Assembly (NCBI RefSeq): GCF_003201565.1
Contig: NZ_QJJP01000014.1
Location: 1-64,000 of the forward strand
Length of the DNA stretch: 64,000 nucleotides
Direction of reading: 5' to 3'
Source: Nitrosomonas sp. Nm84
Lineage (GTDB): Bacteria > Pseudomonadota > Gammaproteobacteria > Burkholderiales > Nitrosomonadaceae
A program made the translations under genes and the position numbers. Below the pieces are notes generated by a model. The model did not search any database. It had not been told where the DNA came from and worked only from the letters and a program-made list of their open reading frames with translations. Positions 43,300 through 59,538 of the stretch are shown in pieces. Position 1 is the first letter of the stretch. Every line of letters begins with the position of its first letter.

Positions 43300-45288
43300 T
43301 CACTTATCCATCGCGCCGAATTCTCGCTGTAACTGCTGCGTAATCTGCGCCAGCAATACCGGAATCTCTGCCAGCAACAGCTCTGCATCAGGCCAGCTAT
43401 TGTTCAAATTGGCTTGCTCAAGTTGTGCGCATAGATCGGCAAAACTTGAAGCGCCGATTGTTCTGGCAGAGGCCTTTAATTTATGCCCCAAGCGGCCTAA
43501 TTCTGGCAAATCTTTCTTGGCTTGTGCCATATACATTTCGGCCAATACGCCATTGGCGACTTCAATGAATTTAAGTGCAAATTTGCGCACCAATGTTTTA
43601 TTGTCATGAAACATTCGATGCAAAATCGTAACATCCACTGGAGATTGCACCTTTTTCCCCTCAATCTCATTACTTCTACTGCTTTGCGCACCTGGTTTAT
43701 TGAGCAGCCATTTGGCTAAAATCAAATACATCTGAGCAGGATCGATGGGCTTGGGTATAAAATCATCCATGCCTACAGCCAGACACTGATTACGATCTTC
43801 TGTCGTTACATTACCTGTCATCGCAACAATGCGTTGTCCCGCGAACTCCGCCGTTGCCCGAATACGACGCGTAGCTTCAAAACCATCCATCACCGGCAGC
43901 TGTGTATCCATCAATACCAAATCAAATTTTTCAGTGGCTAGCCGCTCCAGCGCTTCTTGTCCGTCATTCGCAATAACTGTCACTGCGCCCACTAAACCCA
44001 ATAGGTCCTGAATTACCAATTGATTAAATGGATTATCCTCAACAATAAGAATGCAGGCCCCCTGTAATTGTGCTTTCGCCGCCTCAAGCCCGTCGGCCTG
44101 ATGAACTAAACTCTCTTTAGCTTCGTCCCTGCGTCCGAAACAAGCAGTGAAATGGAATACACTGCCATGACCCAATTCACTTTCAATCCAGATGCGCCCC
44201 TGCATTAACTCAACCAATTGCCGGCTAATCGCCAACCCCAGACCACTCCCCCCATACTTGCGATGAATAGAGTTCTCAGCCTGATTATATGATTTAAACA
44301 AACGCTCGATTTGTTCAGGATTCAATCCGATGCCCGTATCACAAATGGAGAATTGCAGCTCCACTGAACCGGGTTTAAGCACGCTCGCAATTACCTGAAT
44401 GGCTACCGATCCTTGTTCGGTAAATTTGACTGCGTTACCGGCCAGATTAATGAGTATCTGACCTAAACGAACCGCATCCCCATACAAAAAACAGGGAACC
44501 TCATTGGCAATATCAATCTTAAAACTGAGACCCTTATCACGTGCCAGATAACCTACCAAAGAATCCACCCGCGCCAGACATACACGTACATCAAAGTCTT
44601 CTTTTGACAACTCCAGCTTACCTGCTTCGATACGAGAAAAGTCAAGTACATCGTTAATAATATCCAATAACGATTTAGCTGCATGATTGATCTTTTCCAG
44701 ATAATTACTTTGTGTGTTATCCAACTTGGTCTGCAAGCATAGATGCGACAATCCGATAATGACATTCATCGGAGTTCGAATTTCATGGCTCATCGTGGCA
44801 AGAAATGCGCTTTTGGATTGATTGGCCGACTCCGCAGCCCTACGCGCTATCATCAACTCCGCACTCAACCGGCTACGTTCCGCCGCAGCTGCCAGACGCG
44901 CCATCAACTCACTAGGTTGAAAAGGTTTGGTCAAATAATCCGTAGCACCCGAATTGATACCATGCACGACACTGTCAGTATCTTCTTCAGAAGTCAGCAT
45001 GATTACCGGCAGCAACTTCATCTGCTCAATTTGCCGAATTCTCTTGCATACTTCAAAACCGTTCATACCTGGCATATTCACATCAAGCAACACCACATCG
45101 ACTGGATGAACACTCAATAACTGCAGCGCTTCTTCGCCATCCTTGGCTTCCAGAATGTTGTACTCGGAATGATTCAGTGCTGCGCGCACCAGCATGCGAT
45201 TAGTAGCCATATCATCAACCACAAGAATACTATAGCGCCCATCAGCAGATTGCTTCGATTCCCGGTCGGCTTCATTCAATGCAGGCAT
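43300..45288 (-). CDS. Cytosolic hybrid histidine kinase (REC-HK-REC-Hpt)
   Basis: 662 residues from the ATG at 45288, which has an AAAGGAG ribosome site. No membrane segment. Order: N-terminal receiver ([12 protein letters not shown]; phospho-acceptor Asp in [13 protein letters not shown]), HisKA with [13 protein letters not shown], HATPase ([23 protein letters not shown]), a second receiver ([27 protein letters not shown]), and a C-terminal Hpt ([16 protein letters not shown]). It is the last gene of the chemosensory operon, 80 bp after cheB. With a receiver at each end and its own Hpt it is well placed to accept a phosphate from CheA and run a phosphorelay. No DNA-binding output domain is present. 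Confidence 0.92.
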
Positions 45289-45368
45289 GCGTATGCTCCT
45301 TTCATTTTCGCGCAACCATTCAACTGTTCAACAAACCCAATACAGCACAGGATGAATCTCCACAAGTG

Positions 45369-46433
45369 CTACCGGTCAGTATGTTCATTTCTTACCAGAC
45401 TCAATAAATAGGATGCCATGTCCTGTAACTGCACGACCCGATTCACAGCATTCAGTGCAATGGCGGATCCGGGCATGCCATACACCACAGCACTCGCTTC
45501 ATCTTGTACAATCGTATGCGATCCTGCCTGCCACATTGCCAGCAGCCCCTCTGCGCCATCAGAACCCATTCCGGTCAATAACACACCCACACCTCGATCT
45601 TCACAAGTTTCCGCCACCGATTTGAAGAGCGGCGTAGCCGACGGACAAAAACCATTGACAGCCGGCGCATCGCTTAATCTTGCAATCAAACCATCCTGAT
45701 TGCGTTCGACCAACAAGTGATAGTTGTCCGGTGCAAAATACACCGTATCCGACTGCAATTCTTGCCTATCCGTGGCCAGCCTGACCTGTAGCGAAACATT
45801 CTCTTGCAGCCAAGCAATCAGCCCGCTGACAAATCCCTTGCTGATATGTTGTGCGACCACTATCGGTATCGGAAACTCCCGAGGAAACTCCGCCAATATT
45901 GTCAACAGTGCCTGCGGACCGCCCGTAGAACAGCCAATTGCAACAATCTTATACGGTTTGCTGTGTTGCACCATGGCTGCAGCCCCGGATATGCTCAATC
46001 CGCCCTTGCGCGCATGTCCATAACGGCGCACCACTTTTACTTCCGCCATGGAGCGCACAGTATCGATCATTTCTTTGCGCGCCGCCTCAAAACCGGGGTG
46101 ATTCGGTCCCAACGGCTTTTCCAAAACGGCCAGAGCGCCTTCTTCAATCGCACGGAAGGTGATTTCTAATTCCTCATCATCAATACTGGAGCTAATCACA
46201 ACGATCGGCACCGCATGTATCGACATAATTAAACGCGTTGCCTGGAAACCATCCATGATCGGCATACGAATATCCATCGTCACCAGATCAGGATTCAGTT
46301 CTTGCGTCAACTGCACGGCCTCTCGCCCATCCCTGGCGCGCCCGATAACCTGCATATCAGGTGCGCTCTCAAAAATGGTCTTAAGCAACAGGCTAACTAC
46401 ATCGGAATCTTCTACAATTAGAATCCGTATCAT
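45369..46433 (-). CDS. cheB: Chemoreceptor methylesterase CheB
   Basis: 354 residues: receiver (VEDSDVVSLLL; Asp in LVTMDIRMPIMDG), linker, and methylesterase/deamidase domain with the Ser-His-Asp set in AIGCSTGGPQAL, VAQHISKGF and LTGMGSDGAEG. Removes methyl groups from the adjacent receptor when phosphorylated by CheA. Lies between cheA and the hybrid kinase gene with a 27 bp gap to cheA. Confidence 0.95.
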   Translation of the reverse strand: MIRILIVEDSDVVSLLLKTIFESAPDMQVIGRARDGREAVQLTQELNPDLVTMDIRMPIMDGFQATRLIMSIHAVPIVVISSSIDDEELEITFRAIEEGALAVLEKPLGPNHPGFEAARKEMIDTVRSMAEVKVVRRYGHARKGGLSISGAAAMVQHSKPYKIVAIGCSTGGPQALLTILAEFPREFPIPIVVAQHISKGFVSGLIAWLQENVSLQVRLATDRQELQSDTVYFAPDNYHLLVERNQDGLIARLSDAPAVNGFCPSATPLFKSVAETCEDRGVGVLLTGMGSDGAEGLLAMWQAGSHTIVQDEASAVVYGMPGSAIALNAVNRVVQLQDMASYLLSLVRNEHTDR

Positions 46434-46460: not shown

Positions 46461-48791
46461 TCATCCTATTAATTGCTGGATCACATCCAACAACACCTTT
46501 GATTCAAATTGATTCTTAACAATATAAGCATTGGCACCGACTTCAATTCCCCGGCGTTTCTCTACTTCACTACTTAATGAAGACACAATAACAATTGGAA
46601 TATTTCTGAATTTCTCGCTACGCTTAATTCGCTCACTGAGTTCAAAACCATTCATCAGTGGCATTTCAATATCCGTGATGATCAAATCAAAATTCTGCCT
46701 TTGCAATAAATTCCATGCAGCTTTCCCGTTAACCGCCACTGTCACCTGATAGCCACAGGCTTCCAATAGCGTTTTCTCGAAAGTACGGATGGTAATCGAA
46801 TCATCCACCACTAAAATATGCGATGCATGAACTTCTTTCTCCACCGTAGTTTGTTCTTGCACCGAAAGTTGTGCGGCACTGCCTAAGCGTAATGCGGAAA
46901 TCACTAGATCGTCAGGATTCAATACCACAATCACGTCACTACTGCCTACAAAAGTCGCTCCCATAACATTACGAACCGACTTTAAAGGCGGTTTCAAACG
47001 CTTGATAACAATTTCACGCTCACTGATAATTTCCTCAACCAACAGTGCAACGCGTTGCCATCCCTTCGAGATCACAACCAATGGCAATCGCTCCGACATG
47101 CCATAGCGAAATTGCCCGATTTCAAGAACAGCAGACAGATCACGAATTGAAATTGCCTTATTTTCAATCAGGATAGCTTGGCTACCGCCAATTTCGACCA
47201 AGTCATCCTGCCTGATCTCCATCACACGTTCAATCGCAGCAATCGGTATAGCAAATACGCTCCCACTGACACGCACCAACAAGCCACGGTCCGCCGATAA
47301 CGTTAATGGCAGACTGAGAGCAAACGTGGTGCCCTTTCCCTCAACCGTATCTACTGTGATGCGGCCTTTCAAATGACGTATGCTGGTCAAAACGACATCC
47401 AGCCCAACTCCTCGTCCTGAGATATCGGTAACAATCTCCTTGCTGGAAAACCCTGGGCGAAAAATAAGCTGAATGATCTCTGCCTTGCTGAGTACAGCAA
47501 TTTCATGCTGGGTCAGTATTTTTTTTCTAACCGCATACCGTGCCACAGTATCGACATCAATACCCGCTCCATCATCATTAATGGTCATCAAAACCCGATC
47601 ATTTTTCCGATTGACGACAACTGTCAAACGCCCGATTTCAGGCTTGTCTTTGGCACGTCTCTGTTGAGGACTTTCTATACCGTGATCGATAGCATTACGC
47701 AGCAAATGTATCAATGGATCCTTGATGCCTTCCAATATCGGGCGATCCATTTCGATGTCACCGCCGATGATCTCAAAATTGACTTTCTTTTCCAGTTCGT
47801 GCGCAACATCTCGCACCAATCTCGCCATTGGCTGTAACTGCGTCGCAACAGGCACCAGGTACAACGCACGCACCTGGTCCTGCAATCGAAAAAAAGTCAA
47901 ACCGGCGCGATTATTACCATCGCGCATTTGCTTATATAGTTGCTGAGTATCCGTTCTGAAGCGATTAAGAACGGCTGTCATGGTTTCCAGCGAATCATGC
48001 TCCTGGCCAGCATGTACAACCGCATTCGCTTTCCTGATTGTCTCTAGATACTGTAACCAGTCACGGTAAAAAGACTGTGATTCGTCAAATAAGCGCTTAA
48101 TGGCATCCAGGTGTTCTTCCATCTCAATCTTGGAAATCAGCAAATCCTCCACGAGGGCGGAAAACTGATCCAATTTATGCAATGAAACCCGTATCGTTTC
48201 GGTATTCTCATCGACAACTCTGGATTCTACGATCGATGTCGATAGCGGATTCGAAGCAATCGCCAGTACCGGAATTGCCTGCTCAAGTTGTTTGATTGAT
48301 TCGATAGAAGCTTCTGGACCAACGCTGATTTTTTCCTCTACAGCATGCGCAAGCTCGGATTTAGACTTGGACTCCGGTTGGGCCGCCGACTGACCATTCA
48401 ACAAATCCAGTAGATCCTGAATGTCAAAGCCCGGTGGCTGATTGGATTCCAATGCCGTCATGATCAGCTTCATGCGATCCAGACCCAACAAACACCGGTC
48501 AATAGATTCCGAGCTAACCGCCATTTCCTCCCGGCGAAATTTACTGAATAGCGTTTCCAGGCTATGCGCAATACTGGCGATATCTTTCGCATCGATGCCA
48601 CGTGCTGCGCCTTTGATATTATGCGCGGCGCGAAAAATACCATCCAGACACTCCTCGCGTTGCACGCCGGAGATCCCCTTCTCCAATTCAAGCAAACCCT
48701 CGGTGATGAGTTGCGATTGCTCACCCAGTTCAACCTTGAACATCAGCATCAACTGACGCATTATTTCAGGATCGAGTTTCATTACCACCAT
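46461..48791 (-). CDS. cheA: CheA-type kinase with C-terminal receiver (CheA-REC)
   Basis: 776 residues. Hpt domain with phospho-acceptor H57 (RAAHNIKGAARG), a linker with no clear P2, a dimerisation helix pair (about 205-300), the CheA-specific ATPase (LIHLLRNAIDHGIES; GRGVGLDVV), a CheW-like regulatory domain (VSGSVFAIPIAAIERV), and a C-terminal receiver (LVVDDSITIRTFEK; LIITDIEMPLMNG). A GGGAG ribosome site supports the start at 48791. The fused receiver, without a free cheY in the operon, is the WspE/FrzE-like arrangement. Confidence 0.94.
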   Translation of the reverse strand: MVVMKLDPEIMRQLMLMFKVELGEQSQLITEGLLELEKGISGVQREECLDGIFRAAHNIKGAARGIDAKDIASIAHSLETLFSKFRREEMAVSSESIDRCLLGLDRMKLIMTALESNQPPGFDIQDLLDLLNGQSAAQPESKSKSELAHAVEEKISVGPEASIESIKQLEQAIPVLAIASNPLSTSIVESRVVDENTETIRVSLHKLDQFSALVEDLLISKIEMEEHLDAIKRLFDESQSFYRDWLQYLETIRKANAVVHAGQEHDSLETMTAVLNRFRTDTQQLYKQMRDGNNRAGLTFFRLQDQVRALYLVPVATQLQPMARLVRDVAHELEKKVNFEIIGGDIEMDRPILEGIKDPLIHLLRNAIDHGIESPQQRRAKDKPEIGRLTVVVNRKNDRVLMTINDDGAGIDVDTVARYAVRKKILTQHEIAVLSKAEIIQLIFRPGFSSKEIVTDISGRGVGLDVVLTSIRHLKGRITVDTVEGKGTTFALSLPLTLSADRGLLVRVSGSVFAIPIAAIERVMEIRQDDLVEIGGSQAILIENKAISIRDLSAVLEIGQFRYGMSERLPLVVISKGWQRVALLVEEIISEREIVIKRLKPPLKSVRNVMGATFVGSSDVIVVLNPDDLVISALRLGSAAQLSVQEQTTVEKEVHASHILVVDDSITIRTFEKTLLEACGYQVTVAVNGKAAWNLLQRQNFDLIITDIEMPLMNGFELSERIKRSEKFRNIPIVIVSSLSSEVEKRRGIEVGANAYIVKNQFESKVLLDVIQQLIG

Positions 48792-48874: not shown

Positions 48875-51016
48875 CTATGTTTTGTAAATACTGACACACT
48901 CTTTCAATCTTTCAGCCACCTTGCCCATATTGGCTGCTGCGTCCTTGGTCTGTTGCGTGCTGGACACAAACTGTGAAGTCACCTTGTTGATTTCATTCAT
49001 GGATGTAGAAACCTGATCAATACCAACCACTCCCTGCTGTACCGCCGCAACAATCTGCTTACTGGCACGCACCGTTTCATCAATCACTTCACTCAACTGC
49101 TTCATCATTTCACCACTTTTCTCAACCAGGACGACACCGGCATCGACTCGCTTGTTACCTTCTTCTGTCGCCATCACGGCCCGATCCGTCGCGCGCCGAA
49201 TATCTTGCAGTATTTTTTGTACCTGTGCTGTTGACTGCTGCGATTGTATGGCCAGTTCTTTCACCTCTGCAGCAACCACCGCAAATCCCTTGCCTGCTTC
49301 ACCGGCCTTAGCCGCTTCAATGGATGCATTCAGTGCCAGCATCTTGGATTGCTGAGCGATATTGGATACCACATTGGTGATTTCACCAATTTGCTGTGTC
49401 TGTTCCGATAATGCCAAAATAGTATGCGCAATATTTTCCACACGCTCACGAATCACTTCCATGCCGGCTACCGCCTGTTCCAGTATCTGTTGTCCTTGCA
49501 CACCTTCTCGCCGCACGCGCTCCGCCACTTCACCCAACTGTTTTGTCTTGACCAGATTTTGTGCCGAGGTTGAACGTACTTCCTCCAATGTCACGGTAAT
49601 TTCACCAACTGCCGCAGCCTGCTGGGAAGCACCGGCTGCCTGAGTATTAACAGTCGACTGTATCTGTCCCAGCGCAACCAACAAAGTATCATTTGCTTCA
49701 CCGATCTGATGAGTAATGCCCGTCAGACTCTCAACCATTGCATTTAAACTGCCTCCAATCACACTCAGTTCATTGCTACCCTCCGCATCAACACGCCGGC
49801 GCAAATCACCATTGGCTACTTTACTGATAAATTCACTATACCCTTTGACGCGGTTTTTATAATCAACATTGGTACTCACTTGCTGAGTAATATCCGTCGC
49901 AATCATGACCACCTTAATCACTCGCCCTATTTCATCCTTGACCGGCGCATAAACACCCTGTGTCCAGATTTCACCATCCGACTTGGTAATTCTCCTGAAT
50001 GCATCACTCTGATTCTGGCCATTTTTCAAATCCACCCAGAACTGATTATAGGCATGGGATTTTGCATAACCGGATTCCACAAACATTCTATGATGTTTGC
50101 CGACAATCTCTTCTTTCTGATATTCCAATAGTTGCAGGAAGTTTTGATTCACAGTCAGTACATAGCCATCCGGATCAAACTCAATATAAGCATAGGAAGC
50201 ATCAATAGCAGCCAATATCCCTTTCATATTTTGCCGCTCGATTTCCTGCTCGGTAATATCGTAACGCACCCCAATATATTTTTTTGGCTTGCCATTGCGA
50301 CCAAGAATAGGCGCAATCACTGCATCGACATAGTAGGGAGTGCCATCTTTTGCCCTATTTTTAATCATGCCACGGAAAATTTTGCCATGACCAATCGTAT
50401 TCCACACTTGCTTGAAGGTGGCCTTCGGCATATCTGGATGACGGGTAATATTGTGCGAGCTGCCGATTAGTTCTTCTCGACTGTATTTGGATACTCGCAC
50501 AAACTTCTCATTGATATCAGTAATATGCCCGCTCAGGTCGGCGTAGGAAACAATACTGGTTATATTGAGAATATCCGTCAGCACTTTGTACTCAGTTTCT
50601 TGTGTCAATCGCTTTACTGTGTCACTGGTAACATCTCTGGCTATCAGCATGATCCTGACTGGCTTGCCAGTCTTGTCCTGAATCACGTTATAGCAAGCTT
50701 GCAGCCAGATTTCATTTTCTTTCTTGTTCAGCCACTTGCAATCTTCAGTCGCGCTATCCCCTTGTTGAATGGATTCCCAGATAGCTTGATAGCCGGCACC
50801 GTTGATATGAGCCGGATCAAGAAAGACATGATAGTGCTTACCTTTGATCTCCTCCAAAGTATAGCCTGTCAACTCCAAGAAATTGGAATTAGCCGTAATG
50901 ATCATGCCATCAAGATTCAGATCGAGGATACAGTGCAACCTATTCAATGCCTCAACTTGACTTTGATAGTCGACAAGCGTTTCATCTGCTGCTTTTGTAT
51001 CAGTTTTTTGTTTCAT
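48875..51016 (-). CDS. Soluble triple-PAS methyl-accepting chemotaxis protein
   Basis: 713 residues from the ATG at 51016 (GGGG upstream; a TTG at 51031 is rejected). Three PAS/PAC units in tandem (about 20-135, 145-260 and 265-385), each with the 'G.xxY..xx' PAS and PAC signatures (RDVT, YDIT, TDIT). No membrane helix is visible, so the receptor is cytosolic. A short HAMP-like segment (ISKVANGDLRRRV) precedes a full signalling hairpin whose tip reads QQSKMLALNASIEAAKAGEAGKGFAVVAAEVKEL (written in pieces: QQSKMLALNAS; IEAAKAGEAGKGFAV). PAS domains of this kind often bind haem or flavin; the cofactor here is unknown. No CheR-tethering pentapeptide is at the C-terminus. Confidence 0.92.
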   Translation of the reverse strand: MKQKTDTKAADETLVDYQSQVEALNRLHCILDLNLDGMIITANSNFLELTGYTLEEIKGKHYHVFLDPAHINGAGYQAIWESIQQGDSATEDCKWLNKKENEIWLQACYNVIQDKTGKPVRIMLIARDVTSDTVKRLTQETEYKVLTDILNITSIVSYADLSGHITDINEKFVRVSKYSREELIGSSHNITRHPDMPKATFKQVWNTIGHGKIFRGMIKNRAKDGTPYYVDAVIAPILGRNGKPKKYIGVRYDITEQEIERQNMKGILAAIDASYAYIEFDPDGYVLTVNQNFLQLLEYQKEEIVGKHHRMFVESGYAKSHAYNQFWVDLKNGQNQSDAFRRITKSDGEIWTQGVYAPVKDEIGRVIKVVMIATDITQQVSTNVDYKNRVKGYSEFISKVANGDLRRRVDAEGSNELSVIGGSLNAMVESLTGITHQIGEANDTLLVALGQIQSTVNTQAAGASQQAAAVGEITVTLEEVRSTSAQNLVKTKQLGEVAERVRREGVQGQQILEQAVAGMEVIRERVENIAHTILALSEQTQQIGEITNVVSNIAQQSKMLALNASIEAAKAGEAGKGFAVVAAEVKELAIQSQQSTAQVQKILQDIRRATDRAVMATEEGNKRVDAGVVLVEKSGEMMKQLSEVIDETVRASKQIVAAVQQGVVGIDQVSTSMNEINKVTSQFVSSTQQTKDAAANMGKVAERLKECVSIYKT

Positions 51017-51062
51017 CCCCGATATCCCCAAAAATATGACGTACTCAACTCAAGATAATCAG

Positions 51063-51824
51063 CTAACCAACTGATTCATTAATTATTAATGCCGGATTAG
51101 TAAAGATTGCACTGATATTCAATATCACCACTTTGCCTTGATGAATACCACGTATCAATTCATTATCATCCAGTGACGGTGCTAAATGCGCCGGCGCAAA
51201 TTCATCATTGTCATCAATCCCATCCGCTATCAATCCGACTTTCAACTTGCCTTCCCTCACGACAATAATCCAGCATTTCTCTTGCTGCTCATCATGCTGG
51301 ATATGAAAAACTTTCCTTAAATCAAGAACCGTAAGTAATTCACCGCGATAATTGACGATACCGGCAATAAACAAAGGCGTACAGGGTACGCGAGATACTT
51401 TGGTTGCCGGCAGAATCTCTTTCATACTCGCATAAGGCACACCATACAAAGCCGCTTTACCCAATCTGAAACGTATATATTGCTCACTGGCTTCGCGGGT
51501 CTGCTGTTGCGCCTGCTGCGAAAAAATTTTCGCACGTGCGCGCATGATCTGCTGCGCTTCATCGGATTGTGGCATCAATGACCATGCGCTGATTTTAGAC
51601 TGGATGTGACCGGCGACCATCATATCGGCAACCGACTCTTGTGGAGATACTGACAGCGCTGGTGTCATCTGCTCATCGACAAGCACTTGCAATGGCAGCG
51701 GTGTTTCAGCAAAACCAAGCGCCCGATCTAATTTGGTCGAAGTTGGCAAAACCGGCTTACTGATACTGGCAGCGATGCGCTTAGTACTCTTCCGCTTGTC
51801 CTTTTCAGGTTTCTTAGCCGCCAT
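51063..51824 (-). CDS. CheW-domain protein with N-terminal extension (ParP/WspD-like)
   Basis: 253 residues. The first 110 are basic then Pro/Gln-rich (KKPEKDKRKSTKRIAAS; later AQQIMRARAKIFSQQAQQQ), and the C-terminal 140 form a CheW domain (YIRFRLGKAALYGVPYASMKEIL; IVNYRGELLTVLDLRKVF; GLIADGI). The start codon shares one base with the stop of the ParA-like gene (TAATG), so the two are translationally coupled. This matches ParP of Vibrio, whose CheW-like domain joins the array and whose N-terminal part binds the ParA-like ParC. A plain array coupling role (WspB/WspD) is the alternative. Confidence 0.85.
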   Translation of the reverse strand: MAAKKPEKDKRKSTKRIAASISKPVLPTSTKLDRALGFAETPLPLQVLVDEQMTPALSVSPQESVADMMVAGHIQSKISAWSLMPQSDEAQQIMRARAKIFSQQAQQQTREASEQYIRFRLGKAALYGVPYASMKEILPATKVSRVPCTPLFIAGIVNYRGELLTVLDLRKVFHIQHDEQQEKCWIIVVREGKLKVGLIADGIDDNDEFAPAHLAPSLDDNELIRGIHQGKVVILNISAIFTNPALIINESVG

Positions 51825-52570
51825 TACTTACCATCCCATTTGCTCGATGTAGTCTTTTGCCGATCGGTGAATGATCGCATACTCAATAACTCCATCACTT
51901 CTATCGTGAGTGCATCGATTTCGTGTCTGGCCGTCCGATCATGCCATTCACCCACCCACAAACCTCTTGCCAGCACATCGCTATAAGCCACGCGGAAACT
52001 CAGATGAGAATGTAACTGAGGCAATGCTAGTTCGCCTTGTACGGCATCACTGAGCTCCTTCGCCGAACGAGTTTGCTTGCGATAACGATTCCAGAGAATA
52101 TGCGCATCCACTTGATAATGATTCCGCCTCGCCTCGTCGATCGTCGTATGCAAATCAGACAGTGCCCAGATTTCTGCAGCACTTCCTCCCAGCGGCAATA
52201 AACAGAGATCGCTCATGACCAGAATGGCCCGGGTTATCTCGGCGACGCGCGGTGGACCATCAATGATAATAAACGCTTGCGTTTGACTGAGTTCTCTGGC
52301 TTTATCAACCAGCTCGTGATGATTTAATGCGGTAGTGACCAACAGATTACCCAACCGATCATTTTGCTCTCTAATCAATCCCCAGGCGGCACTGGTACCC
52401 TGAGGTAAATCGCAATCGATCAATGCAACCGCCGATTGCTGTGATAATGCCGCCGCAAGATTGGTCGCCACCGTCGAGCGCCCGGCACCTCCCTTTAACT
52501 GCACAACACCAATGATCTTGGATCCAACGCCTGATTCTTGATGAATCGCCAACATTTCAGCCTGCTTCAC
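51824..52570 (-). CDS. ParA-family ATPase in chemosensory operon (ParC/PpfA-like)
   Basis: 248 residues with a deviant Walker A (VQLKGGAGRSTVATNLAAAL, about 22-41; second Lys position replaced by Arg in GGAGRS), Walker A' DCDLPQGTS and Walker B IIIDGPPR. This is the orphan ParA subgroup that positions cargo other than plasmids. Its place between cheR and a CheW-extension gene, with a one-base overlap to the latter, points to positioning of a chemosensory array, as for ParC in Vibrio and PpfA for the cytosolic cluster in Rhodobacter. The GKT/S lysine is replaced by GRST; the family's signature lysine (KGG) is present. Confidence 0.88.
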   Translation of the reverse strand: MKQAEMLAIHQESGVGSKIIGVVQLKGGAGRSTVATNLAAALSQQSAVALIDCDLPQGTSAAWGLIREQNDRLGNLLVTTALNHHELVDKARELSQTQAFIIIDGPPRVAEITRAILVMSDLCLLPLGGSAAEIWALSDLHTTIDEARRNHYQVDAHILWNRYRKQTRSAKELSDAVQGELALPQLHSHLSFRVAYSDVLARGLWVGEWHDRTARHEIDALTIEVMELLSMRSFTDRQKTTSSKWDGK

Positions 52571-52590: not shown

Positions 52591-54111
52591 TTACCGCCTA
52601 TTAGATATCGTATTGGCATAAATACTCATCTCATCCTGAATGATTTCAACAAAGCGTGCATAAGTCATTCCTGGTGCATTGTGCACTTCATGTTGCGAAG
52701 ATGCACGTTTTGCATGCGTCAGTGCATGTGTCAAACATTTCAAACCCGCTGCTCTATCCCCCTGATGTATCAGCAGTAACCCTAACTGATAGTGCGCTTC
52801 AGAGAACGCATGATCCAGAAAAATGGCCTTGCGGAAAGCGCTTTCCGCATCGGCAAATTGTCCGCTCTCGATCAGGATAGTGCCCTGCAACAAATACGTA
52901 AGCTTTTCAGTCGGATCGAGTGTAAGACTTCCCTCGCAGGTTTGCAATGCTTCAGACACGTGCCCCAGGTTGGCCAGTGCTTTGGATTTAGCCTGCAATA
53001 ATTCAGCAGATTTTCCCTGTAGTTTAATCATCTCATCAATAACAAGCAGTGCATCATACCAACGCTCAGTTCGTAAGAGATCTCTAATGAGGGTAATATC
53101 CCCAAAACTCTTTTTGGTCTTGCGCACTGATTTCGGTGGTATTTTTTCTACGTTACTCAGTTCCTCGATGATCTCCGGCGGAACGATCGTATCGGCATTA
53201 CTCGCTGCTAATGCTGGTAACTCAGGCTGAGCGTCTGATTTACGTGTGAAATAGGAGGTCGCGTCTCGTTGAATATACTCAAGATCATCCGGCGCATTCG
53301 TAAAATCGGCGGGGCCTAAAAATAACAAGCCATCCGACACCAGGCATTGTGCAAACCGATTCATGATGCGCCGTATCATGTTCGGTTCCAGGTAAATAAA
53401 AACATTGCGACACAAAATAATATCGGTTACATGGGTGTCTGACTGCGCTGCAGGAAAAATATCTTCCGCCAAATTAAGATAAGCGAACTTTACCTGCTGG
53501 CAAATATCACTGCGTAATTGATAGTCCCCAGAACTTTTCGCAAAATACCTTTGCATGATGAATTCAGGTGTTGCGCGCAACGACCACGCTTTGTAACACC
53601 CTTGAACGGCATCCGCCAGAACCTCCCGATTAATATCAGTTGCCAGGAATTGCAATTTCCAGCGCTGGATATCCGGCAGCATCTCATGCAGCATAATCAC
53701 TATGCTGTAAATCTCCTGACCATTTGCACAACCCGCGCTCCACACGCGTAACGAATAATCCTCAAGCAGTCGTTTGCGGACGATCAACTCAGGCAGCAAT
53801 TCATCACGCAGCAGCGACATTTGTTCGGTATGGCGAAAAAAATAACTTTCTCCAATTGTTATTCGGGTCAGCAGAAACTCAAGTTCCGGCGCTGGATTGT
53901 TGTTTTGTCTCAGCTGCTGCAACAACACCCCGATATCTTCATAACCAAAGTAACTACAAGCTTCTGCAAGCGCGCTACGCAGTACCGGCATTTGGTGATC
54001 CCGCAACACGATACCGGTTCGATGGATAATCAGATGATATAAAGATTCTTCACAAGTCGAGAGAAAAATTACTGGATGATGAGGAGTAAATTCCATCTCT
54101 TTGTGAAACAT
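52591..54111 (-). CDS. cheR: CheR methyltransferase fused to TPR domain (WspC-like)
   Basis: 506 residues. The CheR N-terminal helical domain and SAM-binding domain cover about 15-285 (TRITIGESYFFRH; WSAGCANGQEIYSI; FLATDINREVLADA; DIILCRNVFIYL). After a Pro/Ser linker, TPR-like repeats run about 340-480 (LLQAKSKALANLGHVSEAL; LLQGTILIESGQFADAESAFRKAI; AHYQLGLLLIHQGDRAAGL). A CheR-TPR fusion is typical of WspC and other ACF-type pathways. It methylates glutamates of the operon's receptor. An alternative start is M6 (54096). Confidence 0.93.
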   Translation of the reverse strand: MFHKEMEFTPHHPVIFLSTCEESLYHLIIHRTGIVLRDHQMPVLRSALAEACSYFGYEDIGVLLQQLRQNNNPAPELEFLLTRITIGESYFFRHTEQMSLLRDELLPELIVRKRLLEDYSLRVWSAGCANGQEIYSIVIMLHEMLPDIQRWKLQFLATDINREVLADAVQGCYKAWSLRATPEFIMQRYFAKSSGDYQLRSDICQQVKFAYLNLAEDIFPAAQSDTHVTDIILCRNVFIYLEPNMIRRIMNRFAQCLVSDGLLFLGPADFTNAPDDLEYIQRDATSYFTRKSDAQPELPALAASNADTIVPPEIIEELSNVEKIPPKSVRKTKKSFGDITLIRDLLRTERWYDALLVIDEMIKLQGKSAELLQAKSKALANLGHVSEALQTCEGSLTLDPTEKLTYLLQGTILIESGQFADAESAFRKAIFLDHAFSEAHYQLGLLLIHQGDRAAGLKCLTHALTHAKRASSQHEVHNAPGMTYARFVEIIQDEMSIYANTISNRR

Positions 54112-54129: not shown

Positions 54130-54678
54130 TCAGTTTTCGGGCAAGTGCTTTACTTGCGAGAAAAATGAATCCGCTCGTGTGAAATTGATATTTAAAATAC
54201 GCGGCATATCCAGTAATAAAGTTATTCCTGAATCCAAGCTCAAAGAAGCTTCAAACGGCGCGTTGCCTTCCTTGAATAAATCTCGCATATGAATGGCACT
54301 GGGTTGCATCCCTTCAACCTGCATTACTTCGTCCACGACCAATGCAATTTGAGCGCAACCGTCGCCACATACGACGAGCGGTGTATTCAAGTGATACATT
54401 GCGGGAGATTGCAACCCGAGCCACATGCTCAGATCAACGACAACAAGACTGTTGCCGTGGTAGTTCATCAAACCGACTAGATAATCCGCGCCACCGGGTA
54501 CCGGTTGCAACGCCATTAAAGGTAAAACACATTCAACATATTTAAGTGCAATCGCATAGTGTGTATCCTGCACCCGTACGCGGATGATCTGAAGCATCGC
54601 ATCAGGAGTGTTCCGGTCACCCTCAGATACCGCCGCCGTAGCGTGCTCTATCGGCTGATTATCCATCCCGCCTCTCAT
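54130..54678 (-). CDS. cheW: CheW coupling protein
   Basis: 182 residues; a single CheW domain with a 25-residue lead (IIRVRVQDTHYAIALKYVECVLPL; LVGLMNYHGNSLVVVDLSMWLGL; QIALVVDEVMQVEG). First gene of the operon. Start at 54678, or M5 at 54666 with AGAGG upstream. Ends 18 bp before cheR. Confidence 0.92.
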   Translation of the reverse strand: MRGGMDNQPIEHATAAVSEGDRNTPDAMLQIIRVRVQDTHYAIALKYVECVLPLMALQPVPGGADYLVGLMNYHGNSLVVVDLSMWLGLQSPAMYHLNTPLVVCGDGCAQIALVVDEVMQVEGMQPSAIHMRDLFKEGNAPFEASLSLDSGITLLLDMPRILNINFTRADSFFSQVKHLPEN

Positions 54679-54693
54679 CGGGTTCCGGATTCT

Positions 54694-57600
54694 CTACTTC
54701 ACGTTGTTCAAACAGCGTCCGATCCATTGATTCGTCAACTTCTCCTGTACCGTATTTTGACGTAAACGTGTCGCCAATCCGGAGAAATCCACTTGATCCA
54801 GTGGTTGATCCTGATTAAAACACGAAAACACATACGTGATTTTTCCGGTTTCCGGATCCTGATGCGGTTGCAAGCACTGCGCGCAGATTTCCTTCATCAT
54901 GCATTGCATCGGCGAATTAATCGAGCCGATGGCGAAATGATCGGCTTTCAAATACGGCTTCAGCTGATTATGACGCGCCACGCCGACTGCGGCCATCATG
55001 CGATCTGAACCAATGGCAATAATATGATCGGCATCCGCCAATGCCACTGGCTGCTCGCCCAATTCACCACTGGCATAAGCCACCATGGCCTGCACGATAT
55101 TACCCACATAGCTTTTATCCTGCGGACGTGTGGCCGCAAAACCTGGGGATTCATCACAGCACCACACAACGATATCTGCCGCGGCTTCAATTTCAGCTAC
55201 CTTATAGCGATCCACCATTTTTTTATAGCCGGCAAAATACAGCACTTTTGACCCAGCTGCACGTGCAGCCGCACCAATAGAGAACAATACCGCATTACCT
55301 AAACCGCCACCAACCAATACCACCGTTTCATTCGCTGGAATTTCCGTAGGCGTACCGGTGGGTCCCATCAACACAACCGGCTCTCCCGGTTTCAGCATCG
55401 CACACAGATTGGAAGATCCGCCCATTTCCAGCACAATGAGTGAAACCAGTCCACGTTCAATATCCACCGACGCACCCGTCAGTGCCAAGCCTTCCATCGC
55501 CAACCGCGTATCTCCGGCAATGGTTGCTAGGGCGGCATAATTCTGAAAACGATAAAACTGCCCCGGTTGAAAATGCTCAGCTGCCATTGGCGCATGTACA
55601 ACCACTTCGATAATGTTGGGTGCAAGTCTTTCCACTTTGTAAACCGTTGGCCGCAGTTGATTATTCAGTTCCGCAAAAAATTGCTGCGTCGACTGATCCA
55701 AAGCCGGCTTGACGCGCTCCAGCACACGACTCACTACGGGATAACCTTGCTTGGCACTGGACATCGCTTTTACCACGTTACCGGAATACGATGGATGCAA
55801 ATCACCAAAGAAACTGATGAAACGCCCATCCTGATCATCCTTGTAGCGACTCAGCAATACCATCGGCGTTTCAGGTTTGGGATTGGCGTATGGTGGTCGC
55901 ACCGAATTGCCTGCCTCATCGCAAGCCGCAAAATAACGACCATCGAGCTTAAATTGCTTCTCATCTTCCCGCGCCAATACCGTGTTGGGCTGAGTTCCTG
56001 CAGCAACCAACAAAGCACGTGTCGGTAGCTCAACTTCACCGGCATCCTGCCACTGTCCGGCTTCATCCCGTTTTTGCACCGCAAATTGCACCGATTGCGT
56101 ATGTCCCCATGCATCCACATTGACCCGCACTGGCGTCATGCCTTCAGCAAACCAGATGCCTTCTTCCAGCGCTTTTTCCACTTCTTCGTGGTTCAACGTA
56201 TACGAAGGGCTGTCTGACAGGCGCTTCCGATAGGCAATCGTTGCGCCACCCCAGGATTGCAACAATCCAATGATACGCGGCGCACGTCCTTCCTGTTCGG
56301 CAATCTGACGCTCTGCGCGGATGGCTCGCGCATGGTTGAGAAAATCATCAGCGATGTCTTTTTCTTCCGCATCCCAGGCCTCGCGAACGGCAGCTTCTCC
56401 TCGCACAGCTGTCAGAATTTCATAGCGCTGCAAAAATTTTTCCACTTGTATCGGATAATACGCCAGGGCTTCGGTAGCCGTATCGATCGCCGTTAAACCG
56501 CCACCAATCACCACTACCGGCAAACGTAGCTGCATGTTTGCAATGGAATCACTCTGCGCAGCACCGGTTAATTGCAATGCCATCAGAAAATCAGATGCTG
56601 CACGCACGCCACGCGCCAGCCCATTCGGCAAATCCAGCACAGTAGGACGCCCGGCACCGGCAGCCAGAGCCACATGGTCAAATCCCATGGCAAACGCATC
56701 ATCGGCCGTCAATGTGCCACCAAAGCGCACACCACCAAACAAAGCGAATTCTTCTCTGCGCTCCAATAGCAGACGGATCAGTTTCAAAAAGTTTTTGTTC
56801 CAGCGCACAGTAATCCCGTACTCTGCCACGCCACCAAAACCCCAAGGCATGCGCTGATCCAGACTTTCTTCCAGTGCACTGGCATGTTGAATCGCTTTAA
56901 AGGGTACGCGCTCGCCTTGTTGATTAACCCCCGAAATTTCTTCCGGCAAGGGTTCGATCTTCAGCCCATCAATTCCCACTACCGTGTGACCTTCGTTCAT
57001 CAAGTGATGCGCCAGTGTATAGCCGGCCGGCCCCATCCCCACCACCAGAACCTTGCGACCAGATGCCGGTTTCGGCACCGGGCGACGCAGATTCAATGGA
57101 TTCCAGCGTGTCAGCAGGCTATAAATCTCATATCCCCATGGCAGTGCCAGCACATCCTTCAGCGTCCGTGTTTCTGCCTGAGGAATATCCACAGGGTCCT
57201 GCTTTTGATAAATACAGGATTTCATGCAATCGTTACAAATGCGATGACCCGTGCCGGCACACATCGGATTATCCAGCGTAATCATTGCCAGACTCCCGAC
57301 TGCAACACCTTGCGTTTTGAGTTTGTGAAACTCGGAAATGCGCTCTTCCAATGGACAACCTGCCAACAACGCACCCAGTTCACTTTTCTTGAAGGTAGGC
57401 GGCTCATCCGGCAGCTTGGATTTTTGTATCAAACCTTTTGAACACGAATCCTTACCCTGTTCATGACACCAGATACAGTAATTGGCTTCATCCAGCGCGC
57501 CCATCAGATCAGTGCCTTGATCGGTCAGCGCGAAACCATTGCGTTCGCGCAAATGCCCAAGCCGATGTAGCGGATATCCACCCGACTCATCCGTCTCCAA

Positions 57601-58242
57601 TGACAATAGATGCTGAAAATCGAGCTTGGCAGGCGATTTGAATAAAATTCCTTGATACGTATGCTGCTGTCCGGCCGGCGTTCTCAGCGCCCAGGCAGCA
57701 TAGTGTAACGCTTTGTTCAAGCGCGCTTCATTGTCCGCTTCCGTTTCCATCCACTGCATTACCTTCGTGGCAAAAACCAATTCTGAGAAGGGCTCACAAA
57801 ATTCTGCCGTCAGTTCTTTTTCCAGGGCCAGACCATCGATTTCAGCCAATTCCGCATCACCGACCTTGCTCTTCGCACGACGCTGCACAAATTGCCGCTT
57901 GCAGAAATACAGTGGTGCCAGTTCATGATGCTTTGCGGCCAACTGTTGCACTTCATTCTCAATGTTAAATAACCGAGCAACGAAATCTTCCAGCCAAGGC
58001 GCAATCTCGATCAATAACGCGGAATCATCTTTGGGTAATAATTCATCAGGGTGCGCACGTGCATGTTCCAGCCTTTTATACAGCACTTCATCGCCGGTAC
58101 GGAGAAAATCCATAAATATTTGATCAAGCCTGACCAAACCACTGCGCTGATAAAGATCGGCAATCGTAAAACCAAAATTAAAATTCGATAAAACTGTCAT
58201 TGTTTCCTGCTGAGTGCGTAACGCTGCATCTGAGTTTGTCAT
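54694..58242 (-). CDS. Giant FAD/Fe-S oxidoreductase: GltD-like plus PyrK/FNR-like fusion
   Basis: 1182 residues from the ATG at 58242. (1) An unassigned helical N-terminal region of about 240 residues. (2) Cys clusters at about 254 (YCIWCHEQGKDSC) and 336 (RICNDCMKSC), likely Fe-S ligands. (3) A GltD-like disulfide-reductase fold: FAD motif VLVVGMGPAGYTLAHHL near 397 and NAD(P) motif VVVIGGGLTAIDTATEA near 576. (4) A C-terminal FNR/PyrK-like module from about 867 (FQPGQFYRFQNY; LVGGGLGNAVLF), ending with Cys in MQCMMKEICAQC near 1112, the place of the PyrK [2Fe-2S] site. GltD-PyrK pairs make up electron-bifurcating NfnAB-type enzymes; here both are in one chain. Only 15 bp precede cheW, so co-transcription with the chemosensory operon is possible. 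Substrate is not known. Confidence 0.85.
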   Translation of the reverse strand: MTNSDAALRTQQETMTVLSNFNFGFTIADLYQRSGLVRLDQIFMDFLRTGDEVLYKRLEHARAHPDELLPKDDSALLIEIAPWLEDFVARLFNIENEVQQLAAKHHELAPLYFCKRQFVQRRAKSKVGDAELAEIDGLALEKELTAEFCEPFSELVFATKVMQWMETEADNEARLNKALHYAAWALRTPAGQQHTYQGILFKSPAKLDFQHLLSLETDESGGYPLHRLGHLRERNGFALTDQGTDLMGALDEANYCIWCHEQGKDSCSKGLIQKSKLPDEPPTFKKSELGALLAGCPLEERISEFHKLKTQGVAVGSLAMITLDNPMCAGTGHRICNDCMKSCIYQKQDPVDIPQAETRTLKDVLALPWGYEIYSLLTRWNPLNLRRPVPKPASGRKVLVVGMGPAGYTLAHHLMNEGHTVVGIDGLKIEPLPEEISGVNQQGERVPFKAIQHASALEESLDQRMPWGFGGVAEYGITVRWNKNFLKLIRLLLERREEFALFGGVRFGGTLTADDAFAMGFDHVALAAGAGRPTVLDLPNGLARGVRAASDFLMALQLTGAAQSDSIANMQLRLPVVVIGGGLTAIDTATEALAYYPIQVEKFLQRYEILTAVRGEAAVREAWDAEEKDIADDFLNHARAIRAERQIAEQEGRAPRIIGLLQSWGGATIAYRKRLSDSPSYTLNHEEVEKALEEGIWFAEGMTPVRVNVDAWGHTQSVQFAVQKRDEAGQWQDAGEVELPTRALLVAAGTQPNTVLAREDEKQFKLDGRYFAACDEAGNSVRPPYANPKPETPMVLLSRYKDDQDGRFISFFGDLHPSYSGNVVKAMSSAKQGYPVVSRVLERVKPALDQSTQQFFAELNNQLRPTVYKVERLAPNIIEVVVHAPMAAEHFQPGQFYRFQNYAALATIAGDTRLAMEGLALTGASVDIERGLVSLIVLEMGGSSNLCAMLKPGEPVVLMGPTGTPTEIPANETVVLVGGGLGNAVLFSIGAAARAAGSKVLYFAGYKKMVDRYKVAEIEAAADIVVWCCDESPGFAATRPQDKSYVGNIVQAMVAYASGELGEQPVALADADHIIAIGSDRMMAAVGVARHNQLKPYLKADHFAIGSINSPMQCMMKEICAQCLQPHQDPETGKITYVFSCFNQDQPLDQVDFSGLATRLRQNTVQEKLTNQWIGRCLNNVK

Positions 58243-58332
58243 AATCAATTATTGTATTCTGTTATCCGTGTAATCACTTAACCTAAACGTACTATATTAG
58301 TTGGGTGATAATGTTGAAATCGTTATTTCCTG

Positions 58333-59538
58333 TTACTTCCTATTCTTTTCATAATCGCACAACCATCGGGCAAATTCATCGGCCAGCATGGGCTGTGCAA
58401 TAAAATACCCTTGTATTTCATCGCACCCAAGCTCTGTAACCAATTCGCAATCAGCCTGGTTTTCAATCCCTTCCACCACCACATTCAAGCCAAAAGCTTT
58501 GCCTAATTTTATACTCGACTCGAGAATTACACGAGTCGCCGAATCTTGCGCAGCATTATGTGCAAAAATCCGGTCTATCTTGAGTTCTGTAAAAGGCATA
58601 TATTTAAGCGTTTCCATCGACGCATAGCCGGTACCAAAATCATCTATGGACAACCCGAAACCTTTAAGCCGGATACGCGTCAGAATATCCAGGCTTTGTG
58701 CAAAATCTTTCCCCAGTTTACCTTCGGTAATCTCCAGCGTAACCCGCTCAATCGGCACATTGGAATCCTGCACAGCCTCCTGATAAATCTCCGGCAAATC
58801 AAAGCGATCCAGGTTTGCCATGGAAACATTCACAGAAATTTCCAGATCCAATCCGTTCTGTAGCCAGATATCCAACTGCTGCACGGATTTCTTTAACACA
58901 TTGCGTGTAAAATCATTGATCAAACCATTCTGCTCAATAATGGAAATAAAATTATCAGGAGAAATATAACCATATCTCGCATGATGCCACCGTGCCAAAC
59001 ACTCGACACTGGTGACACGACGGCTGGAAGCGGAAATTTTTGGTTGAAAAAATAGTGTGATCTGATCAGCCATCAAAGCCTGTCGAATCTCCTCCACATC
59101 AAATATTTGTCTTACCTGGGAAGAGTTCGTAGTTTTTTGAATCGGCAAACTCAGTTTTTCCAGTATCGCTGTCAAAGAGCCCATGGTCACCGGCTTAGCC
59201 AATGTGCCAACGACATTCAACCCACGTACAATGGCCAAGCGTTCTATTGCTTTGAGCAAATCCGCCTCAACATCTGAAAATAATACAACTTTTCCACTAT
59301 ATTTCTGATCAGCAATATGACGCAAAAACTCAATGCCATCCATTCCTGGCATTTCAATATCACAAATCAACAAATCGACAACTTCTATTTGAGCAGACAG
59401 TGCAAACAAACCAGCGGCACCATTTTCTGCAACAAGCACTTCATTGACTCCCAATTCTCTAAGCAAATGACTGACAAATTCAAGCATAAATTTGTCATCA
59501 TCAAGTACTAACACACGTAGATTTTTCTTTTTATCCAT
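58333..59538 (-). CDS. REC-EAL response regulator, c-di-GMP phosphodiesterase
   Basis: 401 residues: receiver (VLDDDKFMLEFV; LLICDIEMPGMDG; LAKPVT) at 7-130 and a complete EAL domain (about 148-395). All catalytic elements are seen: E-x-L in VECLARW, NVSMANL, EITEG, IDDFGTGYASM, ELKIDRIF, VVVEGIE and DEIQGYFIAQP. It should hydrolyse c-di-GMP on phosphorylation. It lies 90 bp upstream of the giant flavoprotein gene on the same strand and is a plausible output of nearby kinases, but no link is shown. Confidence 0.93.
   Translation of the reverse strand: MDKKKNLRVLVLDDDKFMLEFVSHLLRELGVNEVLVAENGAAGLFALSAQIEVVDLLICDIEMPGMDGIEFLRHIADQKYSGKVVLFSDVEADLLKAIERLAIVRGLNVVGTLAKPVTMGSLTAILEKLSLPIQKTTNSSQVRQIFDVEEIRQALMADQITLFFQPKISASSRRVTSVECLARWHHARYGYISPDNFISIIEQNGLINDFTRNVLKKSVQQLDIWLQNGLDLEISVNVSMANLDRFDLPEIYQEAVQDSNVPIERVTLEITEGKLGKDFAQSLDILTRIRLKGFGLSIDDFGTGYASMETLKYMPFTELKIDRIFAHNAAQDSATRVILESSIKLGKAFGLNVVVEGIENQADCELVTELGCDEIQGYFIAQPMLADEFARWLCDYEKNRK

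What the first reader, a model, noticed from the sequence alone, without database searches (positions are those of the whole stretch)
51063..52570. ParC/ParP-like array-positioning pair inside a Wsp-like chemosensory operon
Seen: a ParA-like ATPase with deviant Walker A is followed, with a one-base TAATG overlap, by a CheW-domain protein with a 110-residue basic and Gln-rich extension. Known: in Vibrio, ParC (ParA-like) and ParP (CheW-like C-terminal domain) are adjacent and position chemotaxis arrays; PpfA does so for a cytosolic cluster in Rhodobacter. Inference: this operon carries its own array-segregation module, an uncommon addition to a Wsp/ACF-type operon, and the receptor is soluble, so a dedicated positioner for a cytosolic array would be needed.
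Basis: partly seen in the sequence, partly recalled or inferred. Interest (0 to 1): 0.68.

Follow-up and report, generated by a model that had tools for sequence, protein, structure and literature searches.

The report
ParA-like positioner in Wsp-type sensory operon
A few ammonia-oxidising and related bacteria have a ParA-type cargo-positioning ATPase and a matching tail on a CheW adaptor inside a Wsp-like sensory operon, and this ATPase carries an unusual, conserved arginine in place of the usual catalytic lysine.

Summary
A ParA-family ATPase (52570-51824, minus) overlaps by one base a CheW protein with a long N-terminal extension (51824-51063) inside a CheW-CheR/TPR-ParA-CheW-MCP-CheA/REC-CheB operon. 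Eight such operons were found (6 of 85 Nitrosomonas genomes, two other families); six are complete. Six related operons without ParA have only 46-70 residues before the CheW domain, against 99-118 in four measured with ParA. The first half of the tail is constrained and mostly lysine-rich, like published ParA-activating peptides. A ParA/adaptor array-positioning module is the best reading; binding and localisation are inferred. It is not ParC/ParP: different ParA clade, and only the CheW domain aligns with ParP. ParA genes in che operons are already known. In SopA the same K-to-R change impairs the conformational switch. Receptor solubility does not track with ParA. New variant of a known kind; the conserved arginine is its most surprising feature.

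The parts
51824..52570 (-). ParA/MinD-family ATPase, 248 aa (GTG start), Arg in place of the P-loop Lys
   Evidence: Pfam AAA_31 E 4e-15, MipZ 5e-10; NCBIfam ParA_partition 144.5 bits, below its cut-off of 180; orthologues at the same operon position
52472..52495 (-). deviant Walker A box KGGAGRST (residues 26-33); Arg31 codon 52478-52480
   Evidence: sequence; Arg in the 7 chemosensory orthologues where the box is visible
51063..51824 (-). CheW-domain adaptor with N-terminal extension (CheW2, position of WspD), 253 aa
   Evidence: Pfam CheW E 3e-24 at residues 115-242
51585..51824 (-). extension specific to ParA-bearing operons (about residues 1-80)
   Evidence: present in the 7 ParA-adjacent CheW2 proteins that could be read, absent in L061-L064; L065/L068 have a shorter, dissimilar N-terminus
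51777..51824 (-). lysine/arginine-rich N-terminal tip (residues 1-16, net +6), candidate ATPase-activating peptide
   Evidence: analogy to ParA/MinD activators in PMC7993993 (passages)
51705..51734 (-). conserved motif KLDRALGFAE (consensus [LF][DE]xALxFA[EQ]) in the extension
   Evidence: alignment of 7 homologues
51501..51563 (-). Gln-rich segment before the CheW domain, pattern shared with ParA-less operons
51099..51482 (-). CheW (SH3-like) domain
54130..54678 (-). first CheW (position of WspB)
   Evidence: Pfam CheW
52591..54111 (-). CheR-TPR methyltransferase (position of WspC)
   Evidence: Pfam CheR plus TPR
48875..51031 (-). triple-PAS, HAMP, MCP receptor, no predicted membrane segment
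   Evidence: Pfam; hydropathy maximum 1.08
46461..48791 (-). CheA-REC hybrid kinase (position of WspE)
   Evidence: Pfam Hpt, HATPase_c, CheW, Response_reg
45369..46433 (-). CheB methylesterase (position of WspF)
   Evidence: Pfam
43300..45315 (-). REC-HisKA-HATPase-REC-Hpt hybrid kinase, possible output (compare WspH)
   Evidence: Pfam
58333..59538 (-). REC-EAL c-di-GMP phosphodiesterase-like protein, possible output (inferred)
   Evidence: Pfam; a REC-EAL lies beside the L091 operon and REC-HD proteins in or beside L044, L061 and L063

Best explanation
A dedicated array-positioning cassette sits in a Wsp-like (CheR-TPR, CheA-REC, two CheW) chemosensory operon. The second CheW (WspD position) is built into the array through its CheW domain. 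Its N-terminal tail (basic tip plus the [LF][DE]xALxFA[EQ] motif, then a variable linker) binds and regulates the ParA-like ATPase, which links the array to the nucleoid or another intracellular matrix and so spaces it or shares it at division. Shown here: gene order, conservation, one-base overlap, the match between ParA presence and the CheW tail, constraint on tail tip and ATPase, and the conserved Lys-to-Arg change. Inferred: physical binding, nucleoid as matrix, effect on array position, and that the Arg slows or alters the ATP cycle rather than abolishing it.
For: Order CheW1-CheR-ParA-CheW2-MCP-CheA-CheB in six complete operons (window, L009, L044, L045; L091, L092); two more are cut by contig ends (L089 begins inside ParA; G098 breaks inside ParA, L088 and L090) and fit as far as they go. 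A CheA tree puts the 8 ParA-bearing operons on one side of a branch (95/95) from the 6 labelled ParA-less ones. CheW2 has 99-118 residues before the CheW domain in the 4 ParA-bearing proteins measured, 46-52 in L061-L064, 70 in L065/L068. Between window and L009, dN and dS are 0.093/0.646 for the tail's first 45 residues, 0.296/0.24 for residues 46-80, 0.042/0.335 for the CheW domain and 0.062/0.389 for ParA. Short basic N-terminal tips are described for ParA/MinD activators, and noted for TlpT and McdB (PMC7993993, passages). Loss of WspD makes P. aeruginosa WspA polar (PMC8552884, passages), so this CheW position already bears on localisation. [quoted passage not shown]
Against: No interaction or localisation evidence. 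AlphaFold models had mean pLDDT 46 and 34 and were not used. The basic tip is absent by net charge in L045 (0 over residues 1-16) and modest (+2) in L089 and L091; the contrast in identity to the window between tail residues 1-45 and 46-80 is small for L091 (44 and 39%) though clear for L009, L089 and L092. The same substitution in SopA (K120R) impairs the conformational switch and partition (PMC3868542, passage), so this ATPase may not cycle like a normal ParA. Relatives with the same Arg (L046/L042, L072) occur with no CheA, CheW, CheR or receptor gene recognised beside them, so the subfamily's job need not be arrays.
Confidence: 0.58

Rival explanations
1. The ATPase is a static, nucleotide-insensitive or ATP-locked anchor, comparable to atypical ParA-like localisers such as TadZ/CpaE (recalled), rather than a cycling ParA. 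The array is tethered, not moved. (Overlaps with the best reading except for the cycle.)
For: P-loop Lys is Arg in the 7 chemosensory copies where it is visible; SopA K120R is partition-defective through impaired conformational transitions (passage); low dN/dS says that the protein is nevertheless used.
Against: Signature Lys and the DxD[LMV]PQG and DGPP motifs are retained (alignment), as expected for an active ATPase; a basic activator-like tip on the partner argues for stimulated hydrolysis.
Confidence: 0.25
2. PpfA/TlpT-like arrangement: the activator is the soluble receptor's own N-terminus, and the CheW tail has another role.
For: The five Nitrosomonas receptors read have a lysine-rich segment beginning MK[QHK] at or near the N-terminus; in Rhodobacter the receptor TlpT is the PpfA partner (PMC5706961 and PMC7993993, passages).
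Against: Counted from the called starts the net charge of residues 1-20 is only 0, +2, 0, -2 and +3 in these five; the globin-type receptors of L044 and L045 have -2 although their ParA is conserved; the CheW tail, not the receptor type, tracks with ParA.
Confidence: 0.12
3. The ParA has no positioning role; it is a regulatory or accidental operon member (a relative of orphan ParAs recruited for signalling).
For: Orphan relatives with the same Arg outside chemosensory operons.
Against: Same position and linked CheW tail in Nitrosomonas and two other families, low dN/dS.
Confidence: 0.1
4. True ParC/ParP system of the Vibrio type.
For: Same parts list: ParA-like protein next to a CheW-like protein with N-terminal extension and linker.
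Against: Separate ParA clade, no extension homology found, Trp residues conserved in ParP not shared, Wsp-like rather than flagellar operon.
Confidence: 0.03

Closest known systems
Vibrio/gammaproteobacterial ParC-ParP
   Same: ParA-like ATPase beside a CheW-like protein with N-terminal interaction region, linker and C-terminal SH3-like domain (PMC5706961: abstract, introduction, section on the MCP pocket, and passages)
   Different: Different ParA clade; KGGVGKTT in the 8 ParC found in 9 flagellar clusters that I picked; ParP N-terminus (YLDxLL) does not align with this extension; Wsp-like instead of flagellar operon
Rhodobacter PpfA-TlpT
   Same: ParA homologue in a che operon with a soluble receptor; ppfA homologues in che operons of 77 of 206 species (PMC2829493, abstract and passages)
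   Different: PpfA Walker A is KGGVGKT (table in PMC9178275, passage); its partner is the receptor, not CheW; not compared by sequence here
Wsp system (WspH type)
   Same: CheW-CheR/TPR-CheW-CheA/REC-CheB gene set with a receptor, and a hybrid histidine kinase instead of WspR
   Different: ParA and CheW tail present; soluble PAS receptor in place of WspA. Wsp sequences were not compared; the likeness is of gene content and domains, with the Wsp gene roles recalled and partly from PMC8552884 passages
SopA K120R and other P-loop Lys mutants
   Same: same Lys-to-Arg change at the same motif position (SopA box KGGVYKT in the PMC9178275 table)
   Different: laboratory mutant, defective (PMC3868542, passage); here it is the natural, conserved state
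NCBIfam NF047398 'KGGVGR-motif variant AAA ATPase'
   Same: by its name, Arg at the same position, so Arg variants are not unheard of
   Different: only 27.7 bits against a cut-off of 90; not a member

Membership tests
ParC | falls in the clade of ParC genes from flagellar che clusters | tested here: not met
   8 ParC form their own clade at 100/100, away from this protein, in two trees
ParC | intact KGGVGKT Walker A | tested here: not met
   KGGAGRST versus KGGVGKTT in 8 of 8 ParC found
ParP | N-terminal ParC-interaction domain homologous to ParP | tested here: not met
   hhalign aligns only the CheW domain, 18% identity over 98 columns; absence of detectable homology in a short region is weak evidence
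ParP | AIF-domain Trp used for CheA binding (W305 in V. cholerae) | tested here: inconclusive
   Trp conserved in the 8 ParP candidates has no Trp counterpart in the 7 CheW2 (by inspection), but which ParP Trp equals W305 was not established
ParP | CheA with LID domain | not tested
   no LID sequence at hand
PpfA | ParA homologue in a che operon, no ParB | tested here: met
   no ParB among the 10 proteins of the region scanned with Pfam
PpfA | sequence clade with PpfA | not tested
ParA/MinD (deviant Walker A) superfamily | family HMM match and signature Lys | tested here: met
   Pfam and NCBIfam matches, KGG kept
ParA/MinD (deviant Walker A) superfamily | P-loop (catalytic) Lys, KGGXXK[S/T] | tested here: not met
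   Arg; so in 8 of the 46 ParA proteins tallied, all 8 on one branch (96/61) that includes this one
Wsp/ACF-type operon | CheR-TPR, two CheW, CheA-REC, CheB in one operon | tested here: met
   domains and gene order; no class-specific HMM was available
Wsp | WspR (REC-GGDEF) or WspH output and WspA-type membrane receptor | tested here: not met
   receptor without membrane segment; the hybrid kinase is REC-HK-REC-Hpt, only loosely like WspH
ParA/MinD ATPase-activating protein | short N-terminal stretch rich in positive charge on a cargo-binding domain | tested here: met
   net +6 here; +2 to +6 in 6 of 7 homologues, 0 in L045
ParA/MinD ATPase-activating protein | stimulates ATPase activity | not testable with these tools
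   needs biochemistry

The most novel reading that the evidence does not exclude
A ParA subfamily in which Arg has permanently replaced the catalytic P-loop Lys is maintained under purifying selection and was recruited, independently of ParC, to position a Wsp-type array through a tail on the WspD-position CheW, working with an altered (very slow, ATP-locked or hydrolysis-independent) nucleotide cycle.
Probability: 0.25. Interest if true: 0.65.

Novelty: new variant of a known kind. Interest (0 to 1): 0.47.

Why it matters
It looks like an independent assembly of the ParA-plus-CheW-adaptor idea on a Wsp-type array, with natural ParA-less sister operons as controls. It gives a concrete test of whether WspD-position adaptors set array location. 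And the conserved Lys-to-Arg change asks directly whether a ParA can position cargo without the residue thought essential for its ATP cycle.

Tried and rejected
ParC/ParP membership: rejected. The 9 flagellar clusters used for this were picked by me from the CheW list by spacing of CheW and CheA, so 8 of 9 is no estimate of frequency. Structure prediction of both proteins from two-sequence alignments gave mean pLDDT 46 and 34; models not used, no fold search run. A scan of named genomes with the ParA found one locus only. A plasmid search with the CheW2 protein gave 40 records with partial CheW-like hits, none covering 80% of the query; 10 were listed. Idea that a soluble receptor explains the ParA: rejected as a rule. 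Idea that Gln-richness marks the ParA partner: rejected. ParA phylogeny does not settle whether the chemosensory copies are one clade: orphan L042 falls among them at 89/57, and the Arg group itself has 93/93 or 96/61. Paper searches (all nine): ParA/ParP/chemosensory/CheW/positioning (361 papers, 25 listed), PpfA/TlpT (15), KGGVGR with ParA (1, unrelated), Walker A Lys/Arg terms (4), K120R with SopA (1), Wsp with ParA-word-start and others (30, 10 listed), Nitrosomonas with chemotaxis and ParA (8, none on this topic by title), ParA with 'alternative cellular functions' (0), KGGAGR (0). In what these showed me I saw no report of this cassette; papers were seen as listings, passages or single sections, none in full. 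Rows dropped: L040/L041 as duplicates of L044/L045; six K-type rows (L015, L033, L034, L036, L037, L039); L088's ParA fragment and L089's truncated ParA were in no tree. L066 and L067 are not counted as ParA-less because their contigs end just upstream of CheA; their genomes were not among the five with a ParA match at E 1e-28, where at most six candidates per genome were scored.

Full report
What is there. On the minus strand of a Nitrosomonas-type genome (nearest named relative Nitrosomonas sp. GRE_AOB_3, L009, ParA 89% identical) lie CheW1, CheR-TPR, ParA, CheW2, receptor, CheA-REC, CheB and a REC-HK-REC-Hpt kinase, with gaps of -1 to 83 bases between genes. The two genes in the finding are as described, with one shared base between stop and start.

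Is it conserved? Yes. In 85 Nitrosomonas genomes, 6 have this CheA at E <= 1e-100. Gene order was read around all six: window and L009, L088/L090, L089, L091, L092. All six have ParA in the cluster, but in L089 the contig starts inside ParA, and in G098 the contig breaks inside ParA (L088 holds CheW1, CheR and the ParA start; L090 begins in the receptor, so CheW2 is not seen). Two genomes of other families (G203/L044, G405/L045) have the same order, with two receptors, ParA 58-59% and CheW2 36-37% identical. Sampling: of 399 genomes of the order, 5 had a ParA match at E <= 1e-28, namely own, these two, and two without chemosensory neighbours in the stretch held (L046, L047). A class sample of 369 gave only the window's own genome. 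A phylum sample of 299, queried with the L045 ParA, gave own plus two; beside neither ParA (L072, L073) was a CheA, CheW, CheR or CheB hit, only an EAL-domain protein in L072. Families of G405 (18 genomes) and G203 (22) gave only those two. Of 100 genomes of the window's family, 37 had a match at E <= 1e-5, but only own (100%) and G087 (89%) matched over the full length above 35% identity, plus a contig-end fragment in G098 (76% over 30 residues).

Natural controls. Of the 11 genomes of the order with the related CheA at E <= 1e-120, 3 have the ParA beside it. Six others (L061-L065, L068) have the CheW-CheR-CheW-receptor-CheA-CheB order without ParA; in two (L066, L067) the contig ends just upstream of CheA. 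The six have 46-52 (L061-L064) or 70 (L065, L068) residues before the CheW domain, against 99-118 in the four ParA-bearing proteins measured. My ORF caller took the first ATG, GTG or TTG after the in-frame stop, so no longer form with those starts exists; the stop lies 4-12 codons upstream in five and 107 in L063. A CheA tree separates the 8 ParA-bearing operons (95/95) from the six labelled ParA-less ones. This fits one joint gain of ParA and tail, or loss in the others; the root is by midpoint only.

The tail. Seven CheW2 tails share the motif [LF][DE]xALxFA[EQ]; six of the seven also have S-x-x-K-P before it. Net charge over residues 1-16 is +6, +4, +2, +2, +4, +4 and 0 (window, L009, L089, L091, L092, L044, L045). 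Between window and L009, dN/dS is low in the first 45 residues (0.093/0.646), above one in 46-80 (0.296/0.24), and low in the next segment, CheW domain and ParA. The segments are short, so these numbers are rough; the other pairs are mostly saturated in dS. By identity to the window, residues 1-45 against 46-80 are 82/50% (L009), 58/32 (L089), 44/39 (L091) and 58/16 (L092), so the contrast is weak in L091. The Gln-rich part belongs to a segment shared with ParA-less CheW2.

The ATPase. The Walker A box reads KGGAGRST. Arg occupies the P-loop lysine position in window, L009, L088 (fragment), L091, L092, L044 and L045, the 7 chemosensory copies in which it is visible, and in orphans L042/L046 and L072. 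In the 46 proteins tallied, 8 have Arg and 38 Lys (L088's fragment is outside that tally). The 38 include 8 ParC from flagellar clusters. A review table lists KGGVGKT for PpfA and no Arg at this place in its listed members (PMC9178275, passage). In SopA the K120R mutant is defective through impaired conformational transitions (PMC3868542, passage). NCBIfam has a 'KGGVGR-motif variant' family, to which this protein scores far below cut-off, so Arg variants exist elsewhere.

Is it ParC/ParP? In 9 gammaproteobacterial flagellar clusters that I picked, 8 showed a ParC-like gene followed by a ParP-like one (identified here by position and motif, not by name). The window ParA lies outside their clade in both trees. 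The extension does not align with ParP; only the CheW domain does (18% identity, 98 columns). So the system may work like ParC/ParP but is not a member on these tests.

Receptor and output. The window receptor has three PAS domains and no predicted membrane segment, as is true of the four other Nitrosomonas receptors read in full. L044 and L045 each have a protoglobin receptor without, and a second receptor with, membrane segments. ParA-less L061-L064 likewise have one of each. So solubility does not explain the ParA. REC-HD (L044, L061, L063) or REC-EAL (window, L091) proteins lie in or near the operons, pointing to c-di-GMP turnover as an output; this is inference.

Mechanism. Best reading: CheW2 joins the array by its CheW domain and holds the ParA by its N-terminal tail. 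Basic N-terminal tips activating ParA/MinD ATPases are published (PMC7993993, passages), and WspD, the same operon position, affects WspA localisation in P. aeruginosa (PMC8552884, passages). Whether the Arg-bearing ATPase cycles or acts as a static anchor cannot be told from sequence.

Verdict. Real, conserved, rare in the genomes sampled, and a new variant of a known kind. The positioning role is likely but unproven; the conserved P-loop Arg is the part that would surprise a specialist.

Noticed in passing
window 54694-58248 (minus): 1184-aa glutamate-synthase-subunit/hydroxylase-like fusion (NCBIfam PRK06567, below cut-off) lies 15 bases upstream of CheW1 and is also next to CheW1 in L009 and L092; it may share the transcript.
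   Followed up: partly
L046:6832-7479 and L072:9758-10552: Orphan ParA proteins with the same P-loop Arg but no chemosensory gene recognised nearby; their cargo is unknown.
   Followed up: partly
L044:7428-8969, L045:7832-9376, L063:5364-7301: Soluble protoglobin chemoreceptors (Pfam) occupy the slot taken by the triple-PAS receptor in Nitrosomonas, suggesting a sensor slot that swaps domains.
   Followed up: partly
window 50993-51016 and the receptor starts of L009, L089, L091, L092: Nitrosomonas receptors have a short lysine-rich segment at or near the N-terminus (MKQKTDTK here), recalling TlpT; an alternative ParA-binding candidate.
   Followed up: partly
own genome contigs C9, C10, C11, C14: Nine CheW-domain matches in the genome, so several chemosensory systems coexist with this one.
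   Followed up: no
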